Assembly (NCBI GenBank): GCA_030017685.1
Contig: JASEHH010000024.1
Coordinates: 1-40,624, forward strand
Direction: 5' to 3'
Length of the DNA stretch: 40,624 bases
Source of the DNA: Thermodesulfobacteriota bacterium
GTDB taxonomy: Bacteria > Desulfobacterota > BSN033 > UBA1163
The notes below the pieces were generated by a model. That model did not search any database. It had not been told where the DNA came from and was given only the letters and a program-made list of their open reading frames with translations. Positions 16,191 to 36,176 of this stretch are shown piece by piece. Numbering within the stretch: the first letter of the stretch is position 1; each line of letters starts with the position of its first letter. The translations under genes were made by a program, and so were the position numbers.

Positions 16191-16598
16191 CTATTTGACA
16201 CTTCTTTCGATATCTTCCCAGCGCTTGACATATTCCTTGTAGGCCTCCACATCCATTAGGCCCGCCAGATCATGAATATCCCTCATGCGGAGGCCGATCA
16301 TCCATCCTTCCCCATAAGGCTGATGGTTGATCAGGGCGATTTGATCCATCAACTTTTCATTTTTTTTGACAATCGTTCCGCTGACAGGAGAATAGAGTTC
16401 AAAGGAAACTTTGGAGGTCTCGAGGATTCCAAACAGACCCAGTGATTCAATTTCTGAATTTTCCTCAAACAGGTCGATATTCAGCAGATTTCCTATCCAG
16501 GATTGGGCGAAATCGGTGATTCCAATGGTCGCCTCCTCACCATCAACCCTTACCCAGGTATGTTCTTTACTATATTTCAAATCTTTTGGAAAGATCAT
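16191..16598 (-). CDS. GcvH-like lipoyl carrier protein (copy nearest the operon end)
   Basis: A protein of 135 residues from the ATG at 16598, the length of glycine cleavage H protein. It has YSKEHTWVRVDGEEATIGIT at the N-terminus and ETSKVSFELYSPVSG, with Lys63 eight residues before the Pro of SPVSG, the position of the lipoylated lysine. A start at 16637 would overlap the preceding gene by 26 nt and lies outside the conserved part. No glycine decarboxylase or T protein gene is in the window, so it probably serves another pathway, as LbpA does in sulfur oxidation. It is the last gene of the long - strand operon. Confidence 0.85.
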   Translation of the reverse strand: MIFPKDLKYSKEHTWVRVDGEEATIGITDFAQSWIGNLLNIDLFEENSEIESLGLFGILETSKVSFELYSPVSGTIVKKNEKLMDQIALINHQPYGEGWMIGLRMRDIHDLAGLMDVEAYKEYVKRWEDIERSVK

Positions 16599-16611
16599 TC
16601 GATGTTTGTTT

Positions 16612-16926
16612 TCATTGAATGAAATGGATGAGAACATCTCGTTTTACCGCCAATCCGAGCTCTGCTTCTGCGGCCTTGATGATTCCGCAGGGCACAGGAC
16701 AACTGGTATGGCGAATCACTCTCTTCGCCGCCTGGTAAACAATGTCTTCACCGAATGGAAAGCCCAGGATGTCCTGGACCGTGAGGTAAGTGATCATAGG
16801 GGCCATCTCATTAACCTGTTCGCAGTCTGTCTGGACTGTGATGTTTGCCCCTTTTGGTCCCACTTTCGTAGCTATCACAGTAACAAAAAAACCACAAGCC
16901 CCTGGATTGATCTCTAATTTCGTCAT
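16612..16926 (-). CDS. Small Cys-containing protein of unknown function
   Basis: A 104-residue protein starting MTKLEINPGACGFFV. Its ATG overlaps the stop of the ABC ATPase gene (ATGA), so the two are translationally coupled. It has five spaced Cys residues: ACGF, TDCEQV, SCPVPC and one implied pair near the C-terminus. The last part (CGIIKAAEAELGLAVKRDV) looks like a conserved tail of small proteins found near corrinoid genes, possibly the family called DUF6951, which I cannot confirm. No membrane segment is present. A metal or cofactor-handling role is a guess from the cysteines and neighbours. Confidence 0.65.
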   Translation of the reverse strand: MTKLEINPGACGFFVTVIATKVGPKGANITVQTDCEQVNEMAPMITYLTVQDILGFPFGEDIVYQAAKRVIRHTSCPVPCGIIKAAEAELGLAVKRDVLIHFIQ

Positions 16927-18326: not shown

Positions 18327-18330
18327 GATT

Positions 18331-19128
18331 TTAATTCCTGAGAAACCAAAGGATGATGAGAAGGTTGAACAATATGATCCCGATATCCAACCATGTCCAA
18401 GAAAGTTTTCTGGTCGTGATTGGCGTTATTGGCTTTCTGATCCCCCGTAGATAAAGGGTTTGATTAAGGCCATCCATCCGGACAAAGGCTGAGACCATAA
18501 AGGCCCAAAGAATATTTCTTAGTAAGGTGAACCCCTCTGGCAAAGAGGTCTTCCGGAAACCTACCCCCCTCCCTCGCAGTACTTCGATGATTCTCTCGAA
18601 ATCGCTCACCAGCAAACCCACACTCCTAAAAATGAGTGCAAAGGTCCATAGGACAAGGCCAGGAAAACGGAGAGACTGAAAGAGCGCGATGAGTTCAGAT
18701 TCCCGAACGTTTGCTAAGAAGAGTACAGTGGCCATTGCGCACACGAGATATCTAAGCGCCACGTCCATCATAGCAATGAAAGTTCCTGTGGTGACAAAAT
18801 CCCCCCAGGGGTACTTCCAAAGCATTACTCCGGATGATATCTGACTGAAGAAAAAATATCCAATGGTGATAATGAACAAAAAGCCTGTCATGAGAGGCAG
18901 AATTAATCTCCAAGTTCTCAATTCCAATTTGGAAACCCAGGCCGACCCGATCATGAGGACCATTGTTGCTATGACAACCCCCCGGGAGACATAAAACGAT
19001 ATTAGATTCACCATGATCAAGGTGGACAACAAAGCGCAGGGGTTTATTTTTCGGAGAAGCGATCTCTCCGAAAAGTAAAAAAGCATTCCCTTGATTCGGA
19101 AATCCCCACCGCAGGAAGGACAGCCCAT
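18331..19128 (-). CDS. ECF transporter transmembrane subunit EcfT
   Basis: A 265-residue membrane protein with at least five hydrophobic segments and the two coupling-helix motifs typical of EcfT, here LRGRGV (EVLRGRG) and LRGI (LNQTLYLRG), which contact the ATPase. The N-terminus from the 19128 start contains CPSCGG, unusual in EcfT. An ATG at 19086 (MLFYFSERS) is an alternative start closer to the family N-terminus. It lies between the S component (3-nt gap) and the ATPase. It transmits ATP-driven motion to the S component for substrate release into the cell. Confidence 0.87.
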   Translation of the reverse strand: MGCPSCGGDFRIKGMLFYFSERSLLRKINPCALLSTLIMVNLISFYVSRGVVIATMVLMIGSAWVSKLELRTWRLILPLMTGFLFIITIGYFFFSQISSGVMLWKYPWGDFVTTGTFIAMMDVALRYLVCAMATVLFLANVRESELIALFQSLRFPGLVLWTFALIFRSVGLLVSDFERIIEVLRGRGVGFRKTSLPEGFTLLRNILWAFMVSAFVRMDGLNQTLYLRGIRKPITPITTRKLSWTWLDIGIILFNLLIILWFLRN

Positions 19129-19131
19129 TTT

Positions 19132-19689
19132 TTATGCAGCCCTCAGTTTGTAGGCATTGCTTTTTCTTGCGTACGGGGTTAGATAACGGAGAACGAAAGG
19201 ACTGATGGCTCCGGCCATTAAGAAAGTAATGATCAGATATTGAGCCCACAAGACCATGAAGCTCGTCCCGGGCCACAGGCGAAAATATGTCATCGTCCCA
19301 GCCCCCCAAAGGGAGGCGATGATTCCATTGATCAGGACACCGAAAGTGATGAAAACCAGCCAATCCTTCCAACCGTTGAGCAATGGGTCGCTTTTAAGAA
19401 GTTTGAATGCAAGGTAAGGGATCCCAGCCATGAATATATCGCCCGCCACTACCACAAGGGTGTAGTTGAGGGGAAATCCTTTCAATAATCCTCCGATGGC
19501 GCATCCAATGTAAGCCGATGCTACGCCAATTCCCCCAAACCAAATCCCGAAAGCGACCATGACTGGTACAGCAGGACAAAAGCCGATAGGGACACCTGGA
19601 ATGATCGTCATAAAAAAAGCGGCAGAGGTACACAAGATAGCCATAACCGCGGTGCAGATACCTAAAACAACGACTTTGGAAATATCCAT
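19132..19689 (-). CDS. ECF transporter substrate-binding S component, unknown ligand
   Basis: A protein of 185 residues with about six hydrophobic segments, the size and layout of ECF S components. The start ATG at 19689 has a strong GGAGGAAGGGAG site in front; a TTG at 19710 lies inside that site. Family-type features include the glycine-rich PAVPVMVAFGIWFGGIGVA helix and a long Gly/Ala-rich segment after it. I cannot assign a ligand. The neighbours (corrinoid, lipoyl and sulfur-carrier proteins) make a cobalamin precursor, thiamine-like or methylated substrate possible, but that is inference. EcfT and the ATPase follow directly. Confidence 0.8.
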   Translation of the reverse strand: MDISKVVVLGICTAVMAILCTSAAFFMTIIPGVPIGFCPAVPVMVAFGIWFGGIGVASAYIGCAIGGLLKGFPLNYTLVVVAGDIFMAGIPYLAFKLLKSDPLLNGWKDWLVFITFGVLINGIIASLWGAGTMTYFRLWPGTSFMVLWAQYLIITFLMAGAISPFVLRYLTPYARKSNAYKLRAA

Positions 19690-19740
19690 GAAACTTCTCC
19701 CTTCCTCCAAAAAAATTTCATCTGGAATATAATATTCTCA

Positions 19741-19770
19741 ACAGAGGAATATTTCATTCCTCTGTTTTTT
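19741..19770 (+). terminator. Strong hairpin with T-run reading rightward
   Basis: ACAGAGGAAT (19741-19750) pairs perfectly with ATTCCTCTGT after a 5-nt loop and is followed on the + strand by a T-run. That is a textbook intrinsic terminator for rightward transcription, yet no + strand gene lies upstream. On the - strand the same hairpin overlaps the stop of the Sec thioredoxin-like gene and lacks a T-run, so there it may set mRNA decay or reduce read-through into the importer genes. Confidence 0.55.
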
Positions 19771-20032
19771 CTCTGATCGCCTGGATTAATTCCTCCGATG
19801 TAGGGATAAGGCTTTCGAACCGGAGCTCTCCATTAATGGCAATGGAGGGAAGGGATCTGGCATTAGATCTCTTGAACATATCGATTCCCTCTCGATTCCT
19901 TAAGCTCCACTCATGGTAATCGATCCTATCCTGGATCTCTTTTGGAAGGTCGGCTACTGCTGCCAGCATGTAGACGCAAGCAGCTCACTGTGCAAAATCG
20001 GTCACAAAGACATCCACCCGAACTTTTTCCAT
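19754..20032 (-). CDS. Thioredoxin-like selenoprotein with UxxC site
   Basis: The frame runs from ATG 20032 to 19754 (92 residues) with one internal UGA at 19987-19985, codon 16. The site reads FAQ-U-AAC-VYMLAAV. The paralogue at 31615-31944 has YQ-C-AAC-QYMLEAV at the same place, so UGA replaces the first active-site Cys. The rest aligns throughout (LPKEIQDRIDYHEW; cis-Pro at SLPSIAING). Eleven nt after the UGA a stem CTAC-A-TGCT / AGCA-GTAG with loop GGC (19973-19954) fits the bacterial SECIS pattern. A conventional call would start at 19969 and lose the active site. It is probably a small thiol/selenol oxidoreductase serving the methyltransferases of this operon. Confidence 0.85.
19954..19973 (-). 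promoter_or_regulatory. Candidate bacterial SECIS element
   Basis: Transcribed leftward, the stem CTAC / GTAG plus TGCT / AGCA (one bulged A) closes a 3-nt loop GGC. It begins 11 nt after the UGA at 19985, and G is the first loop base. Stem length, spacing and a G in the first two loop positions match the known bacterial SECIS rules. No folding program was run. Confidence 0.55.
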
Positions 20033-20043
20033 TAGGGCCCCTT

Positions 20044-20835
20044 TTAAAGAACGATACCGCTCACGATCGCATATCCAAACTTCTCAGAAAGAAGGCGCTC
20101 CGCCATCCGGTCCAATTCGCTTTCGTCCTTAGGTTCGTATACTCCCAATCGTATGGCATCCTTGAAAGCGTTCATGACTTCATGATAGAGGACCGGTAGT
20201 TCCTCCTTCCAGGGATCTTTGATGTCCGCCGTCAATTCATAACCCACGACATTCTTCAATCCCGCTTTTATGAAGATATCCATCGTCTCCTTCAGAGGTT
20301 GTGCACCCGCTAAGCAGCAAGCATAGAGGAGAGGAGTATGGAGTTCCTTGGGGATCTCGCCTTTGGTGATGACATCGGAGACTGCTACCTTCTTGCCCGA
20401 CTTCACCCCATGGGCTATATTTTGAATCACCTGAACCTTATCTCGAAAAAGGCAGAGGGAACATTCGCTAATCGCAGCATCGAAAGAGCCTTTTGCAAAA
20501 GGCATTTTATGGACATCTCCCTTTTTGAAGGTAGCAAGATGGCGAAGCCCCAGATCCTTGGCCCTTTCAGTAGCGTGGGCTACCATTTTTTCGGAGAGAT
20601 CGAACCCTACCACCTCAGCCTTAAATCTCATTGCCAGATAGAGTGCAGTCTCTCCGGAGCCCGAAGCCACATCCAATATTCGGGTTCCTTCTCGAACACC
20701 CGCCTCCATAGCCAGCTTCTCCGTGTAATCAATGCCGCCAGGATGAAAATTCTCAATCCCTTTGATGAGCCGATCTTCGTAGTATTTAACCGTAAACTCC
20801 TGGAGTTCTTCTGATCCGATCATATCTTTTTCCAT
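20044..20835 (-). CDS. SAM-dependent methyltransferase, ArsM/UbiE-like
   Basis: A class I methyltransferase of about 263 residues. The SAM site is ILDVASGSGETALYL, followed by the acidic VVGFDLS and the motif GDVHKMPFAKGSFDAAISE. A Cys-rich stretch (ECSLCLFRD; YACCLAG) lies where arsenite-type methyltransferases have substrate cysteines. The ATG at 20835 is preferred because GGAG lies 11 nt before it; a GTG at 20847 would sit on that site. It is in the same frame as the preceding ArsM-like gene, separated only by one UGA (20859-20857) and a few codons. The substrate is unknown: a soft-metal or thiol acceptor is inferred from the cysteines and neighbour. Confidence 0.82.
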   Translation of the reverse strand: MEKDMIGSEELQEFTVKYYEDRLIKGIENFHPGGIDYTEKLAMEAGVREGTRILDVASGSGETALYLAMRFKAEVVGFDLSEKMVAHATERAKDLGLRHLATFKKGDVHKMPFAKGSFDAAISECSLCLFRDKVQVIQNIAHGVKSGKKVAVSDVITKGEIPKELHTPLLYACCLAGAQPLKETMDIFIKAGLKNVVGYELTADIKDPWKEELPVLYHEVMNAFKDAIRLGVYEPKDESELDRMAERLLSEKFGYAIVSGIVL

Positions 20836-20856
20836 CTGTTCGATCACTCCAAATGA

Positions 20857-21720: not shown

Positions 21721-21721
21721 C

Positions 21722-22132
21722 CTATCCTCCTTTTCTTTGGAGTTCCTCGATCCGCCTGGCCACCTGCTCGGCCACCGCCCGAGCAAGGTCAGGTTCGAAT
21801 TCCTCTCTCGTTCCCTTCATATCGAGATGAAGGGCTTTGATAATGTCTGGAATGACAAGAGCCCAGGCAACGGTGTGGCTATATTTCTCTGTTCCAATTT
21901 GGGCGCAACGCTTCTCACATCCATCCAAAGTAATTGTTGGAAAGCTTTGGGCAAAGGTCCTCTCCTGCTCATCCCCCGCAATGAAGAGAGGTAGACAGAT
22001 GGTGGCTGTTTCTTCGGGTTTGAGTTCTTCCATAAGGATTCGAACCACGGCCCGGGTGAGAGTCCCTTCAGGGATTTCCTCTCCGCAGCAAGCGATGACT
22101 CCAATCCGTTTGGGGGTGGTCTTTTCATTCAT
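21722..22132 (-). CDS. DGC-domain putative zinc-binding protein (copy A)
   Basis: A 136-residue protein with the signature D70-G-C72-x3-C76 (LDGCEKRCA) and an N-terminal Cys pair in IGVIACCGEE. The family is annotated as putative zinc-binding without a known reaction. Its ATG overlaps the end of the next DGC gene by 8 nt, and its stop lies 1 nt before the ArsM ATG, so translation is coupled. It is one of four DGC paralogues in the operon. The N-terminal CxG-type strand-loop resembles the P-loop position of a Rossmann-like fold, with Cys instead of phosphate ligands. Confidence 0.82.
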   Translation of the reverse strand: MNEKTTPKRIGVIACCGEEIPEGTLTRAVVRILMEELKPEETATICLPLFIAGDEQERTFAQSFPTITLDGCEKRCAQIGTEKYSHTVAWALVIPDIIKALHLDMKGTREEFEPDLARAVAEQVARRIEELQRKGG

Positions 22133-22544
22133 CCTTATCCCCCATTCTGTCCATTACATGACAAATTTCATCAGCCAGAAGATGGACCAGGTATTTGCCT
22201 CCCTCCCCCAGATGGAGAACCGTCCCTAGGTCGAGGTCGTTGGGGTTGAGGTCCCTGTGTTTTCGAAAAAGATCCATGATCGTGAATGGTATGGAAGTCT
22301 TTTCAGCCATCCGTTCAATGTTCTTGTATGAGCATTTTTTTGCGCAACCATCCACGGAGATACAGGGACTTTCTTTCAGAAGGTCAATCGCCTCTTCATC
22401 TCCTTTGGTCAAAAGGCCGAGGCAGAGGGTTCGGGCTTTATCGGGCCGCCGACGTTCCACGACCTCATAAACCGCTTCACGGCAGATGGTTCCGTAGGCT
22501 TTGCCGATGCCGCTACAGGGGATAATTACAACGGGTTTTTTCAT
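22125..22544 (-). CDS. DGC-domain putative zinc-binding protein (copy B)
   Basis: A protein of 139 residues from ATG 22544; a TTG two codons earlier is less likely. It has VVIIPCSGIGKAYG at the N-terminus and VDGCAKKCSYKN (D65-G-C67, C71). The Pro-Cys-Ser-Gly loop followed by a Lys matches copies C and D, where it reads PCGG. It lies 20 nt after the Sec thioredoxin-like gene and overlaps copy A. The tandem arrangement with a Sec thioredoxin suggests that the Cys or metal centre is a redox partner, which is inference. Confidence 0.82.
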   Translation of the reverse strand: MKKPVVIIPCSGIGKAYGTICREAVYEVVERRRPDKARTLCLGLLTKGDEEAIDLLKESPCISVDGCAKKCSYKNIERMAEKTSIPFTIMDLFRKHRDLNPNDLDLGTVLHLGEGGKYLVHLLADEICHVMDRMGDKDE

Positions 22545-22564
22545 TTTCAAGCCATTAAGCCCCT

Positions 22565-22858: not shown

Positions 22859-22960
22859 TCTATCACCCCTAACTTTTGAAAGCTCCATAAATCTGCGAAG
22901 GTCTCCATCCCGACTTTTCAAATATTTGCTTCAGGGAATGCCCATCGCTTTCCATAATCC

Positions 22961-23476
22961 CTACAAATAAGCGAAAGTGGCATTCTCCTCCCTGTCATAC
23001 CCCTCCAGAGGAGTGCCCAGCAGGTGGACGGTCAGGATTTCTCCAAAGAACCAGGTATGGGTTCCCAGCTCCGCTGTCTGTACCACCCGGCACTCGGTAT
23101 TAACCGGGCACTCATCGATCAGGTAGCTGTTTACTTGGCTAGCGCGGACAGGTGTTAAGCCGGTCTCCTTGAATTTATTTACCTTTCGTCCGGAGTGGGT
23201 TCCGCAGTAGTCGATGGCTGGTCGCAGATCGGCTTTGGGGATGTTGACTACGAATTCCCCGTATTTTGTCATTAGCTCATGACTGTACTGGCCCCTGCCG
23301 ATGCCAACGCCTAACATAGGCGGCTTGAAGGAGACGGGATGGACGAAGTGGATGGTGATGATGTTACGGTCACGTTCCCCGCCCACGGTGACCAGCACCA
23401 CTGGGAATTTAGGAAACTGGTATATCCCTTGAAGAATGGGCACCTCTTGTTTCACGAGTGGAGTCTCTGCCTTCAT
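22961..23476 (-). CDS. Flavin reductase-like FMN-binding protein
   Basis: A protein of about 171 residues of the flavin reductase-like (flavoredoxin) family: PKFPVVLVTVGG, then HFVHPVSFKPPMLGVGI, GEFVVNIPKADL and the typical C-terminal EILTVHL. The ATG at 23476 follows AAAGAGGG; a TTG at 23497 would add seven residues. The frame ends in TAG (22963-22961), after which nine sense codons (GLWKAMGIP) precede a UGA. The extension looks partly family-like, so the exact end is uncertain. FMN-bound members pass electrons between ferredoxin or NAD(P)H and small redox partners. It lies between a GcvH-like gene and a Sec thioredoxin-like gene. Confidence 0.82.
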   Translation of the reverse strand: MKAETPLVKQEVPILQGIYQFPKFPVVLVTVGGERDRNIITIHFVHPVSFKPPMLGVGIGRGQYSHELMTKYGEFVVNIPKADLRPAIDYCGTHSGRKVNKFKETGLTPVRASQVNSYLIDECPVNTECRVVQTAELGTHTWFFGEILTVHLLGTPLEGYDREENATFAYL

Positions 23477-23494
23477 GCATCCCTCTTTCGTATC

Positions 23495-23516
23495 CAAGGT
23501 GAATAATTCAACCTTG
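23495..23516. repeat. Intra-operon hairpin at the end of the second GcvH-like gene
   Basis: CAAGGT (23495-23500) and ACCTTG (23511-23516) form a 6-bp stem around GAATAATTCA, itself nearly self-complementary. It spans the stop of the GcvH-like gene at 23508-23510 and has no T-run. A role in mRNA processing between gene groups is possible. Confidence 0.4.
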
Positions 23517-24026
23517 TTTCTGGCTGCGGAGGGAACTGTAAATCGTTCGGCACGTTGGAGATGTACCCCCTTTCAGTCCATTGGGATTTCCACAAGCCTC
23601 AGACTGGAGAAGCCTCTTTTGGTAAGAGATCGGGTTTAAAAAGTGATCTTGGAGACCTATGGAGCCTGATAGCTGAAGAGAAAAGATCCAGGCCCTTCCA
23701 TAAGGGTCTTCCTGGAAGAGATGAGGATTGTCTGTCACTGCTCGGTTAATGCTGAGGATATTTCCAGCCAGAGGCGTTTCAATATATTTAACTTTGTTCG
23801 TTACAGCAAAGGCGATCGTATCCCCAGAGGAAACGGCTTGTCCTTCTTCGACCAGATATTCTACACTTACCACCTCTCCAGACAAAATAAGGCCAGCCTG
23901 AGTGAAACCGAAGACGAGTGCCTTTCCATCCTTCTCGGATCGAATCCAAAACTCAGGGCCTGGCAAGTAGAGTCGATCTTCAGGGATCTCTATCCGGTAT
24001 CCATTAAATCCTTCCACCACAAGCAT
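23508..24026 (-). CDS. GcvH-like carrier protein with Cys-containing tail (second copy)
   Basis: A 172-residue protein. Residues about 25-110 are a lipoyl-type beta-barrel (GPEFWIRSEKDGKALVFGFT, SGDTIAFAVTNKVKYIETPLAG). The candidate modified lysines are K78 and K80; K80 is seven residues, not the canonical eight, before the Pro of TPLAG, so lipoylation is uncertain. A C-terminal tail of about 50 residues (SEACGNPNGLKGGTSPTC) is absent from true GcvH and carries two Cys. The gene starts 30 nt after the TSCPD fusion gene. It may be a dedicated carrier for a different acyl, methyl or thiol group. Confidence 0.75.
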   Translation of the reverse strand: MLVVEGFNGYRIEIPEDRLYLPGPEFWIRSEKDGKALVFGFTQAGLILSGEVVSVEYLVEEGQAVSSGDTIAFAVTNKVKYIETPLAGNILSINRAVTDNPHLFQEDPYGRAWIFSLQLSGSIGLQDHFLNPISYQKRLLQSEACGNPNGLKGGTSPTCRTIYSSLRSQKQG

Positions 24027-24055
24027 TGCGAGGTCGGCTCCTTAACTCCTCTCTC

Positions 24056-28400: not shown

Positions 28401-28630
28401 CCTACGCTGCCCCCAGAAAGGATTCGAATAATTTCGACATGGTCTCCTGGCTCGAGAACCTTCTGTCCAAAATCTGATTTCAGGATTATCTTCCGGTTGC
28501 AAGCGACCCAATAAGGATCTGTCTCCTTTATCTCAAGTTCTTCTATGAGATCCTTGAAGGTCATCTTTTCTTTAATTTCAATCTGCCTCAGTGAATTTTC
28601 AAAAAGGACCTCGACAAAACCACCTATCAT
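28397..28630 (-). CDS. ThiS/MoaD-like small sulfur-carrier protein
   Basis: A 77-residue beta-grasp protein: MTFKDLIEELEI, VACNRKIIL, LEPGDHVEIIRILSGG. The pattern VEIIRILSGG corresponds to the ThiS C-terminus, where Gly-Gly carries the thiocarboxylate. Here three residues (SVG) follow, so activation would need trimming or would use another site. It overlaps the DGC gene upstream and the GcvH-like gene downstream by 4 nt each. No ThiF/MoeB-type activator or thiazole synthase is in the window. Confidence 0.8.
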   Translation of the reverse strand: MIGGFVEVLFENSLRQIEIKEKMTFKDLIEELEIKETDPYWVACNRKIILKSDFGQKVLEPGDHVEIIRILSGGSVG

Positions 28631-29196
28631 AACTGGATCTCTTTTTCTTCAAGTCCCGGCAATGAATTCATATCCTTGGGTCTGTAAACCCCTGGGGCTA
28701 TTTTGATATACCCAAAAGCCTCCTCCACATCCACTTCATAATCGCAAAGGGTAAGCCCGACGGCGTTGATCTTCTGAAGAGTATAATGATAGTTAGGGTT
28801 CTCTCTCATTCCTTTAACAATCCTTACAGCCCTCCGGGCGACCTCTCTGGCCAGTCGTTGGCCTGAATCCTCCAAGACCTTTCTCGCTCTTCCAGGGAAG
28901 AGGCCTGTCTCACTTATAATCTCTGGGACGTAAATCCTGGCAGCCGGTTTGATCTTTAATAGATAGAAGAGGTTCGATCCACACTGGTGAGCACATCCAT
29001 CCAAGATGATGGTTGGATAGGTTTCCACTAATTCAATCTCATCAGGCATTCCCCGAATGAGCCGATGCATGTCAAGAATTTCAACGTCTGATTTGAAGAG
29101 TTCTTCATCGAGTAAATAACCCGCCAATCGAGTCACACAAGAAACGTGTAACCCTATCCCCCCACAGGGGTAGACGGTAACCTTATAAACACTCAT
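28627..29196 (-). CDS. DGC-domain putative zinc-binding protein, long form (copy C)
   Basis: A protein of 189 residues from ATG 29196; the frame is open to a TTG at 29220. It has TVYPCGGIG at the N-terminus, ILDGCAHQC in the middle and a C-terminal extension shared with copy D (ARIYVPEIISETGLFPGR; KINAVGLTLCDYEVD; APGVYRPKDM). The extension makes these two longer than copies A and B. The GRARKVLEDSGQRLAREVARRAV helix closes the domain. The gene is coupled to the ThiS-like gene by a 4-nt overlap. Its reaction is unknown. Confidence 0.8.
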   Translation of the reverse strand: MSVYKVTVYPCGGIGLHVSCVTRLAGYLLDEELFKSDVEILDMHRLIRGMPDEIELVETYPTIILDGCAHQCGSNLFYLLKIKPAARIYVPEIISETGLFPGRARKVLEDSGQRLAREVARRAVRIVKGMRENPNYHYTLQKINAVGLTLCDYEVDVEEAFGYIKIAPGVYRPKDMNSLPGLEEKEIQL

Positions 29197-29210
29197 GTGA
29201 TCCCCGGTAC

Positions 29211-29756
29211 TCAATCCCAAAGAGGGGGCATGGATTTTGGCCGATAGATTGCTGGTTCCACCTGGACGTAGTCCAATAAATCAATTGCTTCGTCAGAGAA
29301 TTCACAGAGGTTTTGGTTGAAGGCTTTTACTTTTCTTTTTTCAAAGCTGTAATATTGATCTTCCAGCATCCATTGAGCTGCTTTGGCTACACAACGAGCG
29401 ACCTCTTGAGCCAATCTTTCCCCCACCAGGTCTAAAACCTGTCGATTTCTTCCCGGGATCAATCCCGTTTGGCTGACCACATCAGGAATATAGATTCTCG
29501 CCGCTGGTGGGATCCCAATTAAGGCCATCAGGCCGGAGCCACAACTCTCCTCGTGACAATCGATGACCACGGTGGGATTATTTTCCACCATGAGGATATC
29601 TTCCTCCACCCCTCTCAAAAAGGCAGGGACGCACATGAGCATCGTCTTTCCCGGAAGAAGATCCTCGTTCACGATGTAGGATGCGATCCGAGCAACGGTT
29701 GACTCGACCTTCTTCATTCCTCCACAAGGGAAGATGCAAATCCGCTTTACAGCCAA
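29211..29756 (-). CDS. DGC-like putative zinc-binding protein, long form (copy D)
   Basis: A protein of about 181 residues, probably starting at TTG 29756 with AAAGGAGG ten nt before; a TTG at 29777 would lie upstream of that site. It has ICIFPCGGMKKVES and IDCHEESC, where the DGC signature is altered to D-C-H with the second Cys kept. The C-terminal half matches copy C (ARIYIPDVVSQTGLIPGR; QVEPAIYRPKSM). It lies between the corrinoid protein gene and copy C. The two long copies may form a heterodimer, which is inferred from pairing and similarity. Confidence 0.78.
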   Translation of the reverse strand: MAVKRICIFPCGGMKKVESTVARIASYIVNEDLLPGKTMLMCVPAFLRGVEEDILMVENNPTVVIDCHEESCGSGLMALIGIPPAARIYIPDVVSQTGLIPGRNRQVLDLVGERLAQEVARCVAKAAQWMLEDQYYSFEKRKVKAFNQNLCEFSDEAIDLLDYVQVEPAIYRPKSMPPLWD

Positions 29757-29792
29757 CTGTACTCCGCCTCCTTTCAACCGACTGAAAGGGAA

Positions 29793-30497
29793 TCAGGGAG
29801 TGGCCCCAAGCTGCTGTTTTGCATGCATCTCTCGGAGCCTCGATATCATTTTGATGGCTTCCTGAACAGCATTGCCAGCATTTTCCGCATAGCCATCGGC
29901 GCCGAAAATATCCGCAACCTCTTTGGTCAGTGGCGCTCCGCCCACCATGATGGCCACGTCCGGATTACGCTCCTTGATCATATGGATGACCTTCTTCATT
30001 CCCATCATGGTGGTCGTCATCATGGCCGATAAGGCAATAATATTGGAGTCAGTCCTGACCTGCTCTTCTGCGAACTTCTCTAAGGGCACATCAGCGCCCA
30101 GATCGTGGACGGTGAAACCAGCCACGTCGAACATCATCTTCACCAGGTTTTTTCCTATGTCATGGACGTCTCCCTGGACCACTCCAATGACAACCTGCCC
30201 CTTGACCGCTTCTTTCATCTCTTTAGCCTTGAGATGGGGGCGGAGAATATTGAGCCCTCCGTAAAGGGCATCGGCACACATCAGGATTTCAGGAACGAAG
30301 TACTCCTGTTTTTCGTAGAGTTGTCCCACGATCTCCATGCCGGCCGCCAGCCCGTTCATGATGGCATCAAAGGGGTCGAGTCCATCCTCAACCGCCTCAT
30401 TAGACGCCACAATTACCTTTTCTTCGTCGTAATAAACAACCCCATCGCTCAGACGCTTTAAAATATCGTTTCTTTTTTCATCGTCTACCATTTTCAT
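29793..30497 (-). CDS. Corrinoid protein of the large operon
   Basis: A protein of 234 residues from ATG 30497, which overlaps the stop of the MtaA-like gene (ATGA) and follows a G-rich ribosome site. The helical cap (EYFVPEILMCADALYGGLNIL) precedes the cobalamin domain with D110-V-H112-D-I-G115, then SAMMTTTMMGM and GGAPLTKEVADIFGADGY. His112 is the expected cobalt ligand. A longer frame to 30587 runs inside the upstream gene and is rejected. It carries the methyl group between the UroD/MtaA-like or MtrH-like enzymes and should be reactivated by the RACo-like protein. Confidence 0.92.
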   Translation of the reverse strand: MKMVDDEKRNDILKRLSDGVVYYDEEKVIVASNEAVEDGLDPFDAIMNGLAAGMEIVGQLYEKQEYFVPEILMCADALYGGLNILRPHLKAKEMKEAVKGQVVIGVVQGDVHDIGKNLVKMMFDVAGFTVHDLGADVPLEKFAEEQVRTDSNIIALSAMMTTTMMGMKKVIHMIKERNPDVAIMVGGAPLTKEVADIFGADGYAENAGNAVQEAIKMISRLREMHAKQQLGATP

Positions 30498-31543
30498 CCC
30501 CCCTTTTTCTTTTTTGATCCATATTCTCTGGTTGTTTCGACCATGGCCTTCATATTTTCCGCAGGAGTTCCGGGCCAGATATCGCATCCCGGCCAGATGG
30601 CGTCGACTCCGCCATCGATGGCCGCCCTCACCTCATTGGCCACATTTTCGGCGGTACCCTCCACCATCACCTTATAGGTGTTCAGGTTTCCTAATAGGAG
30701 ATTTTTGGGCGGGGGACCGATCTTCTGCCTCGACATGGCGACATCGTTTTGGTGCTCCACACTGACAGCATCATATCCGCATTCGTGCATAAAATGGATG
30801 ATTTCATTCGTTTTCCCACAGATGTGGAGGACGACAGGCGACCCAATCTCTTCCCTCATCTTAATCATGAATGGCTGGATCATCGATTTCCAGACTCTCG
30901 GGCTGAGGAGATCGACAGGCGTCCCCATCTCCCGCACAGTGATAAAGTCTGCGCCAGCCTTCTGGTAGAGTTTGGCTTCGGCAATGAGCAGATCCCTGAG
31001 GGGGGTAAGGAACTGGATCACCTCATTGGGCTTTTTGAATGTGTCCTTGAGGAGCTTAGTAAGGTCCGTCACCTGACCGGCCAGGGTAAAAGGCCCCAGT
31101 ACCCAGGACCCCACAGCCACGTCGTTGCCGGTTTCTTTTTTCAAGATACGGATGGCCTCCATGACGACGGGAAAGCGACCTGCATTTTCAGGATCTGAGG
31201 GTAATTTGATGTCCTCAAAAGACTTGATAATCTTTTCTGGAATAGAAGGATAGAGGATGTCTTCGGTCTTGTAGTATTGAACTTTACTCCCCAGCGCTTC
31301 CGCGCATACATTGAAGTCAAAAGGGACGATGGCGCAGTCGTAACCAAAGAGTTCAGGAGTCGCTTTTGCAGCCAGAGCCATCTTCCTGGCATCCTGGTGG
31401 ACCTCATTGAATTGCAGGCCGTACTTCTTCAAGCCGTCCATAACAATATTGCCCATGCCGCTGAAACAAGGGATGAAGTCCACCTCCTCATGGTTCAGTA
31501 GCTTAAGGACTTTCTCTCTCGAATTCAATCCATTTCCCCCCAT
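30494..31543 (-). CDS. UroD/MtaA-family methyltransferase (Cys form)
   Basis: A 349-residue TIM-barrel protein of the uroporphyrinogen decarboxylase-like group that includes MtaA and MtbA, zinc enzymes moving methyl groups between corrinoid proteins and thiols. Likely zinc ligands are H240 and C242 (VVLHICGKT) and C320 (WPGCDIWPG). The N-terminus SREKVLKLLNHEEVDFIPC is typical. The corrinoid protein follows with a 4-nt overlap. Its homologue at 31998-33050 has Sec at the position of C320. The methyl acceptor (coenzyme M, another thiol, or folate) is unknown. Confidence 0.87.
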   Translation of the reverse strand: MGGNGLNSREKVLKLLNHEEVDFIPCFSGMGNIVMDGLKKYGLQFNEVHQDARKMALAAKATPELFGYDCAIVPFDFNVCAEALGSKVQYYKTEDILYPSIPEKIIKSFEDIKLPSDPENAGRFPVVMEAIRILKKETGNDVAVGSWVLGPFTLAGQVTDLTKLLKDTFKKPNEVIQFLTPLRDLLIAEAKLYQKAGADFITVREMGTPVDLLSPRVWKSMIQPFMIKMREEIGSPVVLHICGKTNEIIHFMHECGYDAVSVEHQNDVAMSRQKIGPPPKNLLLGNLNTYKVMVEGTAENVANEVRAAIDGGVDAIWPGCDIWPGTPAENMKAMVETTREYGSKKKKGG

Positions 31544-31579
31544 AGAGGCAATACCTCCTTTCTTCTATTTTCGAGAACA

Positions 31580-31603
31580 GGCGGAGGACTCCCGCCCTCC
31601 GCC
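31580..31603. repeat. Strong GC hairpin between thioredoxin-like and MtaA-like genes
   Basis: GGCGGAGG (31580-31587) and CCTCCGCC (31596-31603) form an 8-bp perfect stem with an 8-nt loop. It lies in the 71-nt gap inside the operon and has no T-run on the - strand. It may slow degradation or partly terminate, so that the genes on either side differ in expression. Confidence 0.55.
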
Positions 31604-31614
31604 ATGGCTCTCTT

Positions 31615-31944: not shown

Positions 31945-31997
31945 GTTCTTCCCTCCTTTCTTTAGAATTAGACCTCTGTGAGATGGCCCTTTCCGTC

Positions 31998-33050
31998 TCA
32001 GGTGAGGGATATAAAACCTTTGGGGACCGTTGTGGGATATTTTGCATAGAATTGTTCATACCACGCTTTTGCTTCAAGAGCCTTATCCACGTTCTCGACC
32101 GGAACGTCATAGGGCATGTCTCAGCCAGGGGCAAAAGTATAGCCTGTTAGTCCCCCTGCGGCCAGACTCACAATGGCATCCTCCTTGGGGTTCACGATTC
32201 CCAGGGAGAGGGCTAAAGTGAGTTTGAGGTTTCCTCCAAAGCCTTTGTTATACTTGACGGCTAAGTCTCTGACGTAGTTGAGGTTGAGTTGCTCGTCAAT
32301 GGCAAACCCGTGGGTTCCTACCTGGCACACTTCTTCAAGGACCTTGGTGGCATCTCCACAAATGAAGAAGCTCGAAGTGAGACCCGCATCATGGATCACT
32401 TTAATCGCTTCCTGGCATGCCGGTGTGACAAACTCTCTAAAGGTTTGGGGTTTGATCTGGGACGCCACGGGGTCAACAATGGCAATGATTTCACATCCGA
32501 TATCACGATAAATTCTTGCCGATTCAGCTCCCACCTTGCCAGCAAAATCGATGATCTCTTTAGCGAGGGGTCTGTTCTTGATGACATCGGTAAAGATCTT
32601 CACCCCACGGAGATGGGAAGCCAAAGTGAGAGGACCACACAAGAGGCCCATCAGAACCCAGTCACCCTTTTTGGCCATCACTTTCTTGCCAGCCTCTACG
32701 ATGACGGGCCAACGACCATCCTTGGCCGTCGGGATCTTGAGATTTGCTTCTTTCAAGGACTTATCCTGCAAAGGATGGCTTACGACGGCCGGCGGGTTGT
32801 CTAAGACCCACTTTGCTTGACACCCCATGGAGATGGCCTCTACATTCAGATCAAAGATCAGAGGAACGCCATCTGCTTTGTACCGTTCGGCCGCGAACAA
32901 AACCCCTTTGGCAATGAGGTCGGGGTCTTGGAGATATTTGTCTGCCTTCTCCCCGATGAGATAGGCGGCGTGGACCCCTGCATAGGGAACCCAGGGGGCC
33001 GTTTCAGTTTTCTTTCCCCGATAGGCATCAATCAACAATTGTTTAGCCAT
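31998..33050 (-). CDS. UroD/MtaA-family methyltransferase with selenocysteine as zinc ligand
   Basis: The frame from ATG 33050 continues through UGA at 32123-32121 (codon 310) to a UGA at 32000-31998, giving 350 residues. The paralogue at 30494-31543 has 349. The site reads FAPG-U-DMPYDVPVENVDKA against WPG-C-DIWPGTPAENMKA, so Sec takes the place of the third zinc-ligand Cys. Thirteen nt after the UGA is a stem ACGTTC / GAACGT closing the loop CGGTCGA, which contains GGUC as in the E. coli fdhF SECIS. C231 (FFICGD) is kept, but the His two residues before it is Phe229. Stopping at the first UGA would remove the family C-terminus. The substrate is unknown. Confidence 0.9.
32089..32107 (-). promoter_or_regulatory. 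Candidate bacterial SECIS element (GGUC loop)
   Basis: Read on the - strand, ACGTTC and GAACGT form a perfect 6-bp stem around the 7-nt loop CGGTCGA, 13 nt after the UGA at 32121. G is the second loop base and the GGUC core is the one bound by SelB in E. coli fdhF mRNA. Spacing and loop fit the known bacterial rules. This was found by eye; no folding energy was computed. Confidence 0.75.
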
Positions 33051-33209
33051 TTAATTCCCTCCCTTCCTTGAATATTCCCTCGAAGAATTGACCTTTCTTC
33101 TCAGGGTTTGCTCTGCCCCACCACTCCTGACCCAGCCTCCTTCTCCTGGGAGTCTTTTTGGGTTTGGGCGGATTGTTGCTCCTCCTTCTTGTAACTTTTA
33201 AGAATTCGT

Positions 33210-35186
33210 TTAAACGGCGACTGTCACCACCCGGTAGCAGCGCAGGCAACGCTCGGATTCGGCTACCGCTTCCGGGGAAGAAAAGCCTTTCTCCACTTCC
33301 TCAAAGGAAGATTTCCTGGTTTCCGACGGCAATTTTGTCACTGGTTTCCGATCTCGAGGCTCAGAAACTTTTACGGTTTCATTCGGATCATAAATTTTTA
33401 CTGTTTTAAAGAGTTGGTCAAAATAGTCGTCGTTCCCAGCTTCGAGAGGAGAACCGTTCAAGAGCCCGTCAATGGTGAAGGCCGCTTTCTTACCCATAGC
33501 CGTAGCTTCTATCAGGGATTGGGGACCCAAGACCGCATCTCCTCCGGCGAACAGGGTCGGATCATCCGTTTGCATGGTGAAGGGATTCACCTTCAAGGTG
33601 CCCCACTCGGAAAGGGTGCAGACACATTCAGGCCCTAAGCAAGCCCAGTCTGATTCCTGTCCCAATGCCGATATTACCCCATCAACCTCCATGAGAAACT
33701 CCGAGCCTTCGACAGGTATCGGATGGGGACGCCCGCTGGCATCGGGTTCGCCCAAAGTTACCTCAAGGCATTCGATGGCTTTTACCTTGCCGTTTTCCCC
33801 AATGATCCGCTTGGGGTTGGTCAAGGTCTGGATATGGATCCCTTCTGCCTCACAGTCTTTTATTTCATCCGGGTGGGCAGGCATTTCTTCTCTGCTTCGG
33901 CGATAGATTATGAAAGCCTCTTCGGCTCCTAATCTTCGAGCCGTTCGAACCGCATCGATGGCCACATTCCCGCCGCCAATCACAGCGATTCGTTTTCCCA
34001 AAGTGTTTTTTTTCCCCGATCTCACTTCTTTCAAGAAATCCAGCCCGGAATCAACCCCTTTTAGGTCTTCTCCTTCTATTCCCAGCTTTTTGCATTCATG
34101 GGCGCCGATAGATATAAAAATGTATTGGTATCCCTCCTTCCGGAGTTGCTCGGTGGTAATATCCCTACCTATTTCCAGACTGGTTTTGATTTCCCCCCCC
34201 AGTTTTTTAATCGCCTCGATCTCAGCCTGAACTATATCCTGGGGCAAACGATATTCAGGGATCCCAACCGCCATCATTCCGCCTGCTACAGGTTGTTTCT
34301 CAAAAACCGTAACCGGATGCCCTTTCCTGGCCAAGTGATAGGCACAGGTCAGACCGGCCGGACCAGCGCCAACAATGGCCACCTTGCCCGTCGTTTCCGA
34401 GGAAATAATGGGATAGGCCGGTTGTTTCCGGCTGGATAATTCCTGATCGGCCACAAAGCGCTTGAGCAAACGGATGGCAATGGGCTCATCCGCGTTGGCA
34501 CGGAGGCAATGGTCCTCACAGGGATGATAGCAAACCCGGCCCACGACACCGGGCAGAGGCAAGTCCTCACGGATTACTTCCAGGGAATCTGCAAATTTGG
34601 CCTCTTTAATACGCTCAATATATCTGGGGATATCAAGGTGAATGGGGCAGGCATCCATGCATGGAGCGGTCAATTTGGAATAATACCTGCCAGCCGCCAC
34701 CTGGCTCCTTTCACGGATAGCCCGTGAAAAGTCCTCGCTAAAATATTTCAGGGCATGAAGGAGGGGAACAGGGCCCTCCCTTCCGATGCTGCATTTTGAA
34801 TACCCGATGATCGTTTTCGCCGCTGTTTGTAAAAACTCAGGATCATCTTCCCGGGCCTCTCCGTTAGTGAGATCCCTGAAGACTTCTAATATCTCCTTGA
34901 ATCCGGTGTTGCAGTAATTACACTTATCACAGGTTTTGGTATGGTCGGATATCGCCTCAATATAAACCCGACAGAGATCGAGTATATTTACTTCCGCCGA
35001 ACAGATAATGATGCCTCCCCAGCCCATCATGGCCTTGATCTCTTCCCCCGGTTTGAAATATTCCTGCAATGCTACCTGATCTACCGATGCAAAATCCTTT
35101 GATTCTTTTCCCCGGTTATCTATAATTTGGCCTTGCCATGAACTAAAAAGTACATCCTTCACGAATTCTTTTCCCCCATATACCAA
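33210..35186 (-). CDS. GltD-like FAD/NAD(P)H oxidoreductase with N-terminal Fe-S domain
   Basis: A 658-residue flavoprotein. Residues 1-160 resemble the iron-sulfur end of NuoF-type subunits (CDKCNYCNTGF). From about 175 on it matches the small subunit of glutamate synthase: Fe-S motifs APCMDACP and CYHPCEDHC, FAD site VAIVGAGPAG, NAD(P)H site IAVIGGGNVA, and a C-terminal CLRCYR. It probably transfers electrons between NAD(P)H and a ferredoxin-like carrier or the MtrH/corrinoid proteins. It starts 1 nt after the MtrH-like gene. The 159-nt gap behind it holds no gene I believe. Confidence 0.85.
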   Translation of the reverse strand: MVYGGKEFVKDVLFSSWQGQIIDNRGKESKDFASVDQVALQEYFKPGEEIKAMMGWGGIIICSAEVNILDLCRVYIEAISDHTKTCDKCNYCNTGFKEILEVFRDLTNGEAREDDPEFLQTAAKTIIGYSKCSIGREGPVPLLHALKYFSEDFSRAIRERSQVAAGRYYSKLTAPCMDACPIHLDIPRYIERIKEAKFADSLEVIREDLPLPGVVGRVCYHPCEDHCLRANADEPIAIRLLKRFVADQELSSRKQPAYPIISSETTGKVAIVGAGPAGLTCAYHLARKGHPVTVFEKQPVAGGMMAVGIPEYRLPQDIVQAEIEAIKKLGGEIKTSLEIGRDITTEQLRKEGYQYIFISIGAHECKKLGIEGEDLKGVDSGLDFLKEVRSGKKNTLGKRIAVIGGGNVAIDAVRTARRLGAEEAFIIYRRSREEMPAHPDEIKDCEAEGIHIQTLTNPKRIIGENGKVKAIECLEVTLGEPDASGRPHPIPVEGSEFLMEVDGVISALGQESDWACLGPECVCTLSEWGTLKVNPFTMQTDDPTLFAGGDAVLGPQSLIEATAMGKKAAFTIDGLLNGSPLEAGNDDYFDQLFKTVKIYDPNETVKVSEPRDRKPVTKLPSETRKSSFEEVEKGFSSPEAVAESERCLRCYRVVTVAV

Positions 35187-36176
35187 CTAACCCTGTATCT
35201 TCTTTAATTCACCGGCTTGATCCCAACGGACCCTGAGCTGTTCTGCAAAATCGTTATACAGCTTAAATAAAGGATGATTTGGCTCTTTGGGAAGCTGTTT
35301 CGTTTCATCAAAAGCCGCTGTAGCCAGAAAGGCATCGGCCATTGCTACCGCGGGCATGACCCGCGGGGCGCCGGCCATGGGCCCGGTAAAGACCAGATCG
35401 TGGTAGTAAAAGGCGGCCAGGGCTTCTAATGCGGCATCAATAGCGGCCCAGCCCTTAAAATCACCCTTCTCCTGGAAACGCTTAAATTCCATGTAAGAGC
35501 CGTTACTTGGCGCACCGGCTGTGGCAAAGCCCCACCTTTCCTTGATCATCCGGTTGGCAATCCCGCACAGGGCAGTCGCAGGTCCATTTAGCACCGAAGT
35601 ATCCACAATAATGCTCTCAAACTTAGCTCCGACCTTTTCTAAGGCATTGATCAGTTTCTCAGCCCCTTTAATCCTGCCGGAAGGCATTTGATCGTTTACA
35701 TCAAAGGCCACCAGGACGACATGCTTTACTCCGATATTTACAATTTCCTTGATCTCGGTTTCTATATTTTCCTCGAAGACAGTCAGACTATTATAGAACA
35801 TGCGGTCGAGCAAACCCTTCTCCGCACAATAGGCCGCTCCCTGCAGTTTGGTTTCCATCCCGATGGCATCTATGCAAAAAGCCATTTTGCTGTTGGAGAT
35901 TACAAAATCGATGTAGGCGTTAAATTTTTCTCCCGGGCTGGCTACGATGTCCGCCATAGGGATGGCCCCGGTTTCATCCCATAAGCGGTCACAGGTCTTA
36001 AGCATCTCTTCCGCCCGCTTTTCATTAAACCCCCTTCTGCGGCTGCCTTTATCAAACAGTTTGTCGCTTTCCTGAAATATGGAAAAGCAACAGATGGTGG
36101 GATATTCCCCTGGTTGACCCCCAAATTTAACCCCCCCAATTTCACATACCATTTGCTCTTTGGCAAAACGAAACAT
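35187..36176 (-). CDS. MtrH-like methyltransferase (H4MPT/H4F-dependent)
   Basis: A 329-residue homologue of MtrH, the subunit of methanogen methyl-H4MPT:coenzyme M methyltransferase that moves methyl groups between pterin and corrinoid. Typical features are IGGVKFGGQPGEYPT near the start, the DIVASPGEKFNAYIDF region, FNAYI..ISNS, and GPATALCGI. ATG 36176 follows AAAGGAGGGTG; a GTG at 36179 is directly before it. Bacterial MtrH proteins accompany corrinoid methyltransferases and take the methyl group to tetrahydrofolate. It is the first gene of the operon, behind a TTGACA promoter and a leader hairpin. Confidence 0.9.
   Translation of the reverse strand: MFRFAKEQMVCEIGGVKFGGQPGEYPTICCFSIFQESDKLFDKGSRRRGFNEKRAEEMLKTCDRLWDETGAIPMADIVASPGEKFNAYIDFVISNSKMAFCIDAIGMETKLQGAAYCAEKGLLDRMFYNSLTVFEENIETEIKEIVNIGVKHVVLVAFDVNDQMPSGRIKGAEKLINALEKVGAKFESIIVDTSVLNGPATALCGIANRMIKERWGFATAGAPSNGSYMEFKRFQEKGDFKGWAAIDAALEALAAFYYHDLVFTGPMAGAPRVMPAVAMADAFLATAAFDETKQLPKEPNHPLFKLYNDFAEQLRVRWDQAGELKKIQG

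What the first reader, a model, noticed from the sequence alone, without database searches (positions are those of the whole stretch)
16191..36176. Twenty-kilobase operon joining corrinoid methyl transfer, selenoproteins, lipoyl-type carriers and an ECF importer
About 25 same-strand genes with overlaps or small gaps combine MtrH, two UroD/MtaA-like enzymes, a corrinoid protein, RACo, three GcvH-like proteins, a ThiS-like carrier, four DGC proteins, four thioredoxin-like proteins (two Sec), TSCPD, DUF2284, ArsM-like enzymes and an importer. I know of no described pathway with this set. It may process an imported methylated sulfur, selenium or metalloid compound and hand the methyl group to a pterin.
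Basis: inference. Interest (0 to 1): 0.85.

Follow-up and report, generated by a model that had tools for sequence, protein, structure and literature searches.

The report
Selenoprotein methyl-transfer operon of anaerobes
A long operon in an uncultured anaerobic bacterium carries vitamin-B12-dependent methyl-transfer genes whose recurring core, shared with sulfate reducers and some acetogens, is a methyltransferase-like protein with selenocysteine in its predicted active site, paired with or fused to its own thioredoxin-like protein; the compound it acts on is still unknown.

Summary
The operon is real: 27 contiguous same-strand genes (16191-36179). A same-genus MAG has 17 of the first 18 in the same order; its contig then ends. 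A DUF6951 gene was also missed. 80 related loci show a local build of a modular system. In 73 main-family loci MlpA is Sec in 67, Cys in 3, cut off in 3. A CAAC thioredoxin-like gene (TrxA) is next in 63 of 69 with room, and fused to MlpA in all 7 distant (Sporomusa-type) loci. A G3E GTPase is near in 58 of 73, though none was found in this window. Donor enzymes vary: MlpB, pyrrolysine MtmB, or MtmB without pyrrolysine. MtrH, and acetyl-CoA synthase elsewhere in the genome, support methyl delivery to tetrahydrofolate. The substrate (S, Se, As, amine) is not established; the importer seems lineage-specific. By a tested criterion it is not a type 1 mlp gene cluster. New variant of a known kind.

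The parts
36484..36972 (-). MerR-type regulator with a Cys-rich C-terminus, upstream of the operon (possible regulator)
   Evidence: PF13411 48.5 bits; sequence
35187..36179 (-). MtrH-like methyltransferase (methyl-corrinoid to tetrahydrofolate, inferred)
   Evidence: PF02007 146 bits, cut-off 22.8
33210..35186 (-). NuoF-type Fe-S / GltD-like flavoprotein (electron supply, inferred)
   Evidence: PF10589, PF14691, PF07992; next to MtrH also in G001, G041, G067, G159
31998..33050 (-). MlpA: UroD-fold, methyltransferase-like selenoprotein; Sec codon 32121-32123, stop is the second TGA
   Evidence: PF01208 156 bits; Sec/Cys exchange; stem after UGA; model nearest 4ay7 MtaA
31615..31944 (-). TrxA: thioredoxin-like partner of MlpA, QCAAC motif
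   Evidence: next labelled gene after MlpA in 63 of 69 loci; fused in 7 of 7 distant loci
30494..31543 (-). MlpB: MtaA-like methyltransferase with His-x-Cys...Cys kept (donor-side enzyme, inferred)
   Evidence: NF004889 257.6 bits, cut-off 244; sequence
29793..30497 (-). corrinoid protein (ORF extends to 30587)
   Evidence: PF02310, PF02607
29211..29777 (-). DGC-domain protein 1
   Evidence: PF08859 28.9 bits, cut-off 27
28627..29220 (-). DGC-domain protein 2
   Evidence: PF08859 36.7 bits
28397..28630 (-). ThiS-like carrier, C-terminus GGSVG
   Evidence: TIGR01683 44.3 bits
27897..28400 (-). divergent GcvH-like protein a, lipoyl-lysine position kept (by reading)
   Evidence: PF01597 41.7 bits; with DGC1-DGC2 also in L060, L061, L125
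25935..27884 (-). RACo corrinoid reductive activase
   Evidence: PF14574 326 bits
25295..25954 (-). DUF2284 protein
   Evidence: PF10050 156 bits
24951..25286 (-). HUIPC-family thioredoxin-like protein, Cys form (HCIPC)
   Evidence: NF047660 107.3 bits, cut-off 105
24056..24967 (-). TSCPD domain plus a phosphoesterase-like region
   Evidence: TIGR03905 81.3 bits, cut-off 67.7; second part by reading only
23508..24026 (-). GcvH-related protein b
   Evidence: NF045810 202.5 bits, cut-off 150
22961..23497 (-). flavin reductase-like protein (absent from the G001 copy)
   Evidence: PF01613 113 bits
22565..22858 (-). thioredoxin-like selenoprotein (UILC), Sec codon 22805-22807
   Evidence: UGA kept in L007; NF047660 55 bits, below cut-off
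22125..22550 (-). DGC-domain protein 3
   Evidence: PF08859 50.4 bits
21722..22132 (-). DGC-domain protein 4
   Evidence: PF08859 61.5 bits
20857..21720 (-). ArsM (arsenite methyltransferase family)
   Evidence: NF008823 340 bits, cut-off 263
20044..20847 (-). second SAM methyltransferase, DVU_1556-like
   Evidence: NF045667 107.5 bits, below cut-off 155
19754..20032 (-). thioredoxin-like selenoprotein (UAAC), Sec codon 19985-19987
   Evidence: related stretches have UxxC in 24 of 31
19132..19710 (-). membrane protein, probable ECF S component
   Evidence: no family match; lies before EcfT; no relative in the other 296 genomes
18331..19128 (-). ECF T component
   Evidence: PF02361 44 bits
16923..18326 (-). 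ECF double ATPase
   Evidence: PF00005, two stretches
16612..16926 (-).
   Evidence: PF22263 93.9 bits, cut-off 27
16191..16637 (-). standard-type GcvH, contiguous with the DUF6951 gene
   Evidence: TIGR00527 120.1 bits, cut-off 115.85

Best explanation
A corrinoid methyl-transfer operon of a modular kind. The recurring core is a selenocysteine UroD-fold protein (MlpA), a CxxC thioredoxin-like partner (TrxA) and, usually nearby but not found in this window, a G3E GTPase; donor and acceptor enzymes are exchangeable around it. In this window, as I infer: MlpB takes a methyl group from a soft-atom (thiol- or selenol-type) substrate onto the Co(I) corrinoid protein; RACo keeps the corrinoid reduced; MtrH passes the methyl to tetrahydrofolate for the acetyl-CoA synthase pathway. 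MlpA keeps Cys231 and Glu253 and has Sec310 in place of the third ligand Cys and Phe229 in place of the His of MtaA. It works on the same methyl-corrinoid with TrxA: most likely a TrxA thiol is the thiol that MlpA methylates or demethylates, the place coenzyme M holds for MtaA, kept reduced by thioredoxin-reductase-type enzymes. Shown by sequence: gene content, order, Sec/Cys exchange, pairing and fusion. Inferred: every reaction and the direction of flow. My estimates: shared core system 0.9; methyl to tetrahydrofolate 0.75; MlpB acts on S- or Se-methyl 0.45; TrxA as thiol partner of methyl transfer 0.35.
For: TrxA is the next labelled gene after MlpA in 63 of 69 main loci with room; fused in 7 of 7 distant loci and in G035. 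Sec in 67, Cys in 3, cut off in 3 of 73 main loci; fewest Sec/Cys changes on a quick tree 4; a complete 5-pair stem after the codon in 70 of 73 Sec copies and 1 of 10 Cys copies (one record counted twice, L123/L152). SelB and tRNA-Sec in the genome. Near MlpA in 73 loci: G3E 58, corrinoid protein 49, RACo 47, DUF6951 37, MlpB 34, MtrH 31. MtmB with an in-frame TAG in 4 of 7 distant loci, and PylD and PylSn genes beside the fusion in Sporomusa ovata. acsB/cdhC present. MlpA model pLDDT 93.4, nearest solved fold MtaA 4ay7; residue mapping. Of 297 phylum genomes, all 3 with HUIPC over cut-off and all 4 with GcvH_rel_desulf over cut-off have Sec-MlpA, which 5 genomes have.
Against: No biochemistry. 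MlpA scores below the MtaA/CmuA cut-off (128 against 235 bits) and lacks the usual ligand set, so it may not transfer methyl at all. With MtrH in the operon a second acceptor step is not obviously needed. Six of 69 loci have another gene after MlpA (MtrH 3, another Trx 2, MlpB 1), and in 6 of the 63 the gap is 186-489 nt. No G3E gene matches the window at E<=1e-3. Contigs are often short, so counts are lower bounds. Model coordinates could not be opened, so the Cys-Sec distance was not measured.
Confidence: 0.5

Rival explanations
1. It is a type 1 mlp gene cluster or a close cousin: salvage of methyl-selenium or methyl-sulfur compounds (dimethylselenide, methaneselenol, methanethiol) to release selenide for a selenoprotein-rich cell.
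For: Two UroD/Mlp proteins, corrinoid protein and RACo in one direction with gaps under 2 kb; MlpB keeps His-Cys-Cys; Mlp2 assay on selenide and Methanococcus work as reported in PMC10418091 and PMC11097638 (passages); three Sec genes in the operon.
Against: MtrH lies within 20 kb, which the authors' definition excludes; MlpA lacks His-Cys-Cys; related loci carry amine-type methyltransferases.
Confidence: 0.25
2. It handles methylated metalloids (arsenic or similar): methyl groups removed through MlpB and the corrinoid, the freed As(III)-like product held by dithiol proteins (Trx-like, lipoyl, DGC).
For: ArsM in the operon (340 bits); DUF2284 matches the C-terminal part of an ArsM-fused selenoprotein model at 78 bits, far below its cut-off of 575; aquaglyceroporin label in 6 of 73 loci; ArsR-like genes seen by eye in G159 loci; many vicinal-thiol proteins.
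Against: ArsM and the second SAM methyltransferase match nothing at E<=1e-10 in 80 loci; by reading, no arsenic efflux gene among the unlabelled neighbour clusters shared by five or more loci.
Confidence: 0.12
3. MlpA-TrxA is not a methyltransferase but a redox or repair partner of the corrinoid protein: Cys231/Sec310 form a selenenylsulfide switch reduced by TrxA.
For: His ligand replaced in all 41 aligned MlpA (40 Phe, 1 Tyr); CxxC partner; thioredoxin-reductase-like gene in 26 of 73 loci; core found with different donor enzymes.
Against: RACo already reduces the corrinoid; G3E metallochaperone-type genes nearby hint at a metal site; nearest fold and PDB sequence relative is MtaA.
Confidence: 0.2
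4. The run is several unrelated sub-operons that happen to be adjacent.
For: ArsM and the second methyltransferase are not found in the 80 loci; the S component has no relative; the G001 contig ends before this part.
Against: 17 of the first 18 genes are colinear in G001; DGC1-DGC2-GcvH_a with MlpB and MlpA in three further contigs; the far end of the run holds a DUF6951 gene, a family near MlpA in 37 of 73 loci. Odds lowered from 0.15 to 0.12 after that gene was found.
Confidence: 0.12

Closest known systems
Type 1 mlp gene clusters (Kountz and Balskus, PMC10418091)
   Same: at least two MtaA-like proteins, corrinoid protein, RACo-type activase, same strand; mostly in selenium-using anaerobes (their report)
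   Different: MtrH present; MlpA is a selenoprotein without the His ligand and with a paired or fused thioredoxin-like partner; DGC, lipoyl, TSCPD, DUF6951 genes. Membership of MlpA/MlpB in clades Mlp1-3 not tested
Methanol methyltransferase operon of Desulfofundulus kuznetsovii/salinus (PMC5770442, PMC11206085; passages seen)
   Same: corrinoid proteins, UroD protein, P47K (CobW) GTPase, ferredoxin-type protein, MtrH-type protein
   Different: has MtaB for methanol; no thioredoxin in the gene list seen and no occurrence of 'selen' in PMC5770442
Methanogen MtmB-MtmC-MtbA-RamA methylamine system (recalled; partly described in PMC8318568 passages)
   Same: donor enzyme, corrinoid protein, UroD-type second methyltransferase, activase; the Sporomusa relative sits with MtmB and Pyl genes
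   Different: coenzyme M is the acceptor there; no Trx partner (recalled)
HUIPC thioredoxin-like selenoprotein family NF047660 (Haft and Tolstoy 2025 as cited in PMC13188914; paper itself not held)
   Same: one window protein is above the family cut-off; the 3 of 297 genomes over cut-off all have Sec-MlpA
   Different: nothing I could read links that family to MlpA or corrinoid transfer

Membership tests
[quoted passage not shown]
   MlpA is a distant MtaA relative (128 bits, cut-off 235)
Type 1 mlp gene cluster | same direction, no more than 2 kb between these genes | tested here: met
   largest gap, corrinoid protein to RACo, about 1.9 kb (coordinates)
Type 1 mlp gene cluster | no tetrahydrofolate methylase homolog within 20 kb | tested here: not met
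   MtrH at 35187-36179; a pterin-binding enzyme at 10888-11691 (PF00809)
Type 1 mlp gene cluster | His-Cys-Cys zinc site in the Mlps (the authors note exceptions in several Mlps1) | tested here: not met
   MlpB yes; MlpA has Phe-x-Cys and Sec/Cys
Type 1 mlp gene cluster | members of clades Mlp2 and Mlp3 | not testable with these tools
   reference Mlp sequences were not at hand
Corrinoid methyl-transfer pathway to tetrahydrofolate | donor methyltransferase, corrinoid protein, activase, folate methyltransferase, C1 sink encoded | tested here: met
   activities not tested
Bacterial selenoprotein (MlpA) | conserved frame after UGA, Sec/Cys exchange, stem after UGA, SelB and tRNA-Sec in the genome | tested here: met
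HUIPC thioredoxin-like family NF047660 | score above curated cut-off of 105 bits | tested here: met
   window 24951-25286, 107.3 bits; the other three thioredoxin-like proteins are below it
SAO or Tso selenoprotein operons | Sao or Tso family proteins encoded in the operon | tested here: not met
   none listed for 27 window proteins scanned with NCBIfam (26 of the 27 operon genes and the MerR gene); four lists were cut at 25 families

The most novel reading that the evidence does not exclude
MlpA-TrxA is a protein-based substitute for coenzyme M: a selenocysteine methyltransferase moves the methyl group of a methyl-corrinoid protein to or from a thiol of a dedicated thioredoxin-fold carrier, giving anaerobic bacteria a protein thiol as C1 carrier between corrinoid and folate or sulfur metabolism.
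Probability: 0.22. Interest if true: 0.87.

Novelty: new variant of a known kind. Interest (0 to 1): 0.62.

Why it matters
The core occurs in named isolates that can be grown (record titles: Desulfatitalea alkaliphila, Desulfospira joergensenii, Desulfocicer vacuolatum, three Desulfofundulus, Desulfotomaculum copahuensis, three Sporomusa). A selenocysteine at the predicted metal site of a corrinoid methyltransferase-like protein, with a paired or fused thioredoxin partner, is not described in what I could search. It is a directly testable candidate for the second methyltransferase of bacterial methylamine and methyl-sulfur/selenium pathways, and a gene caller that stops at the UGA loses the active-site end of MlpA.

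Tried and rejected
GcvH_rel_desulf is too loose below its cut-off (245 of 297 genomes at E<=0.001, 4 above cut-off). Two Sec residues in MlpA: dropped. The draft also left GcvH_c out of the operon; a check search found the DUF6951 gene that closes the gap. My script label 'MttB' proved to be the MtmB family. A fixed-register stem test was off by one base and was redone. An S-component model without alignment was poor (pLDDT 54.8) and is not used. Promoter/terminator scan uninformative. Rfam found nothing at gathering scores in the window.

Full report
What is there. On the minus strand from 36179 to 16191 lie 27 contiguous genes. Gaps from MtrH to EcfA are -65 to 159 nt, and EcfA, a DUF6951 gene and the last GcvH overlap by a few bases. 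There are three selenoprotein genes, not two. The extra one is the first UroD-fold protein, called MlpA here: its frame continues through a UGA at 32121-32123 and ends at a second UGA, since sequence after that is not conserved in the relative. The genome has SelB (373.9 bits, cut-off 242.25) and tRNA-Sec (82.2 bits, cut-off 47). It has acetyl-CoA synthase twice above the cut-off of 356 bits (565 bits with one TAA inside, and 435 bits). Its one dsrA match has 75 bits against a cut-off of 393, so the host may not reduce sulfate; the MAG is 92% complete.

Is it more than chance. A same-genus MAG (G001; contig L007, identical to record L059) has 17 of the window's first 18 genes in the same order; the flavin reductase is absent and GcvH_b matches in two overlapping pieces. 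Nucleotide identity is 83% over 10.3 kb. The contig ends inside DGC3, so the rest could not be compared.

The wider family. A 4-row MlpA alignment found 96 relatives among genome contigs, of which the best 80 were kept. 73 are main family (58% identity or more) and 7 are distant (about 42%: three Sporomusa and four others). In the main family the position is Sec in 67 (66 read as APGU, L095 as SPGU), Cys in 3, and 3 contigs end before it. In the distant group 1 is Sec and 6 Cys. In 41 aligned proteins Cys231 and Glu253 are invariant and position 229, His in MtaA, is Phe in 40 and Tyr in 1. That these MtaA residues are the zinc ligands is recalled; PMC10418091 gives the site as His-Cys-Cys. A quick tree needs at least 4 Sec/Cys changes and joins the window's MlpA to Bacillota copies such as Dethiobacter with 99% support (the program warned of long branches at G035 and MlpB). 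Two other genomes of the same phylum have MlpA loci nearest Desulfobacteraceae or Desulfococcus records, so the host phylum is probably Thermodesulfobacteriota and the operon may have moved between phyla; this is inference.

The partner. The next labelled gene after MlpA is TrxA in 63 of the 69 main loci with at least 400 nt of room, MtrH in 3, another thioredoxin-like gene in 2, MlpB in 1; 4 loci had no room. The gap is 11-489 nt, median 34, six of them 186 nt or more. Of 71 TrxA stretches read, 63 have QCAAC, 7 (the distant ones) CPPC or CAPC, and one began after the motif. In all 7 distant loci the UroD and Trx parts form one frame. Pfam sees both domains in the Sporomusa ovata protein, the Trx part at 22.4 bits against a cut-off of 24.8. 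The phylum sample gave one more fusion, in G035, with Cys and a CAAC Trx part.

The neighbourhood. Labels within about 10.5 kb of MlpA in the 73 main loci (tblastn E<=1e-6, best label per place): G3E GTPase 58, corrinoid protein 49, RACo 47, DUF6951 37, DUF2284 35, MlpB 34, a small CxxC thioredoxin 34, MtrH 31, thioredoxin-reductase-like 26, HUIPC-like 24, sigma-54-type sensor and response regulator 13 each, SMC-like 11, MtmB-type 10, GcvH_b 8, TSCPD 8, aquaglyceroporin 6, DGC1, DGC2 and GcvH_a 4 each. Names of the extra families rest on one Pfam-scanned representative each or on reading. Contigs are often short, so these are lower bounds. In Sporomusa ovata the order is corrinoid protein, MtmB with one in-frame TAG (754 bits when read through), RACo, UroD protein, a class II tRNA synthetase core (PylSc by position), radical SAM (PylB by position), PylC-like, PylD, PylSn (139.6 bits, cut-off 51), MlpA'-Trx, G3E. 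MtmB matches carry one in-frame TAG in 4 of the 7 distant loci; the other 3 have no MtmB label. In the main family 10 of 10 have no stop in the matched stretch and share the motif whose valine aligns with the pyrrolysine of MtmB in L138. The core is therefore not tied to one donor enzyme.

Co-occurrence. Of 297 genomes drawn from the phylum, 6 carry MlpA at E<=1e-60: five with one UGA (G000, G041, G067, G159, G178; five genera, four families) and G035 with Cys and fused. HUIPC over its cut-off is in 3 of 297 (G000, G041, G067) and GcvH_rel_desulf over its cut-off in 4 (those and G159), all within the five. Weaker HUIPC matches at E<=1e-8 add only G159 and G178; in G178 they are the thioredoxin-like genes beside MlpA, one of them TrxA itself, so that case is not independent. 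In G067 and G159 the HUIPC-type genes lie on other contigs than MlpA. No correction for ancestry was made.

How it probably works. Established family chemistry gives the frame: corrinoid protein as methyl carrier, RACo as reductive activase, MtrH as folate-type methyltransferase, MtaA-type proteins as thiol methyltransferases. MlpB with His-Cys-Cys is the likely donor enzyme for a soft-atom substrate in this window. MlpA's site suggests either a changed metal site or a Cys-Sec redox pair; the paired or fused Trx ties it to a thiol. I favour a TrxA thiol as methyl partner (0.35), with the redox-switch reading as closest rival. The predicted model is confident (pLDDT 93.4) and nearest to MtaA 4ay7 (TM-score 0.82, 26% identity), but its coordinates could not be opened.

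What is known. PMC10418091 (abstract, first three of six parts of the text, figure legends) describes type 1 mlp gene clusters and proposes methyl-selenide or methionine salvage; its criteria exclude clusters with a folate methylase within 20 kb, so this operon is not one by definition. The Desulfofundulus methanol operons (PMC5770442, PMC11206085, passages) list a similar core with MtaB. The 2026 review of prokaryotic selenoproteins (PMC13188914, passages and one section) lists HUIPC but has no occurrence of uroporphyrinogen, UroD, MtaA or CmuA. The main text of deep-Sep (PMC12013277, word search only) has no occurrence of methyltransferase or corrinoid. I found no description of a Sec UroD/Trx pair in the listings of searches, all of one open-access library. 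Haft and Tolstoy 2025, Haft and Gwadz 2023, Niess and Klein 2004 and Zhang and Gladyshev 2007 were not held and may contain relevant matter.

Verdict. The real find is the shared core, not the gene list. The window's own additions (DGC, ThiS-like, lipoyl proteins, ArsM, importer) remain unexplained, though DGC1-DGC2-GcvH_a recurs in three further contigs labelled Bacillota, Dethiobacter and Syntrophomonadaceae.

Noticed in passing
L094, L113, L114, L115, L117, L118, L119, L120, L122, L138: MtmB-family genes without an in-frame stop beside MlpA; valine stands where L138 aligns with the pyrrolysine of MtmB. Function unknown, perhaps a parallel to MttB-family proteins without pyrrolysine.
   Followed up: partly
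L133 (Sporomusa ovata) about 496-12364: Pyrrolysine genes, MtmB with an amber codon, a UroD-Trx fusion and a G3E GTPase in one locus.
   Followed up: partly
window 10888-12476, minus strand: A second small corrinoid module: pterin-binding enzyme and corrinoid protein, with DUF1638 and DUF169 genes nearby.
   Followed up: no
window 117-9344, plus strand: Likely anti-phage defence island: DUF1156 DNA methylase, SNF2 helicase near BrxH/HmaA/DrmD models, and separate OLD/GajA-like ATPase and TOPRIM pieces.
   Followed up: partly
window 28397-28630 and L007 5344-5574: ThiS-like protein whose GG is followed by three residues (SVG, SEG) in both genomes.
   Followed up: partly
window 19132-19710: Probable ECF S component with no family match and no relative in the other 296 sampled genomes of the phylum.
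   Followed up: partly
L053 2890-3870, L055 6032-7060, L080 4411-5409: Short SMC-like ATPase ending in Cys-Cys, label found in 11 of 73 MlpA neighbourhoods; role unclear.
   Followed up: no
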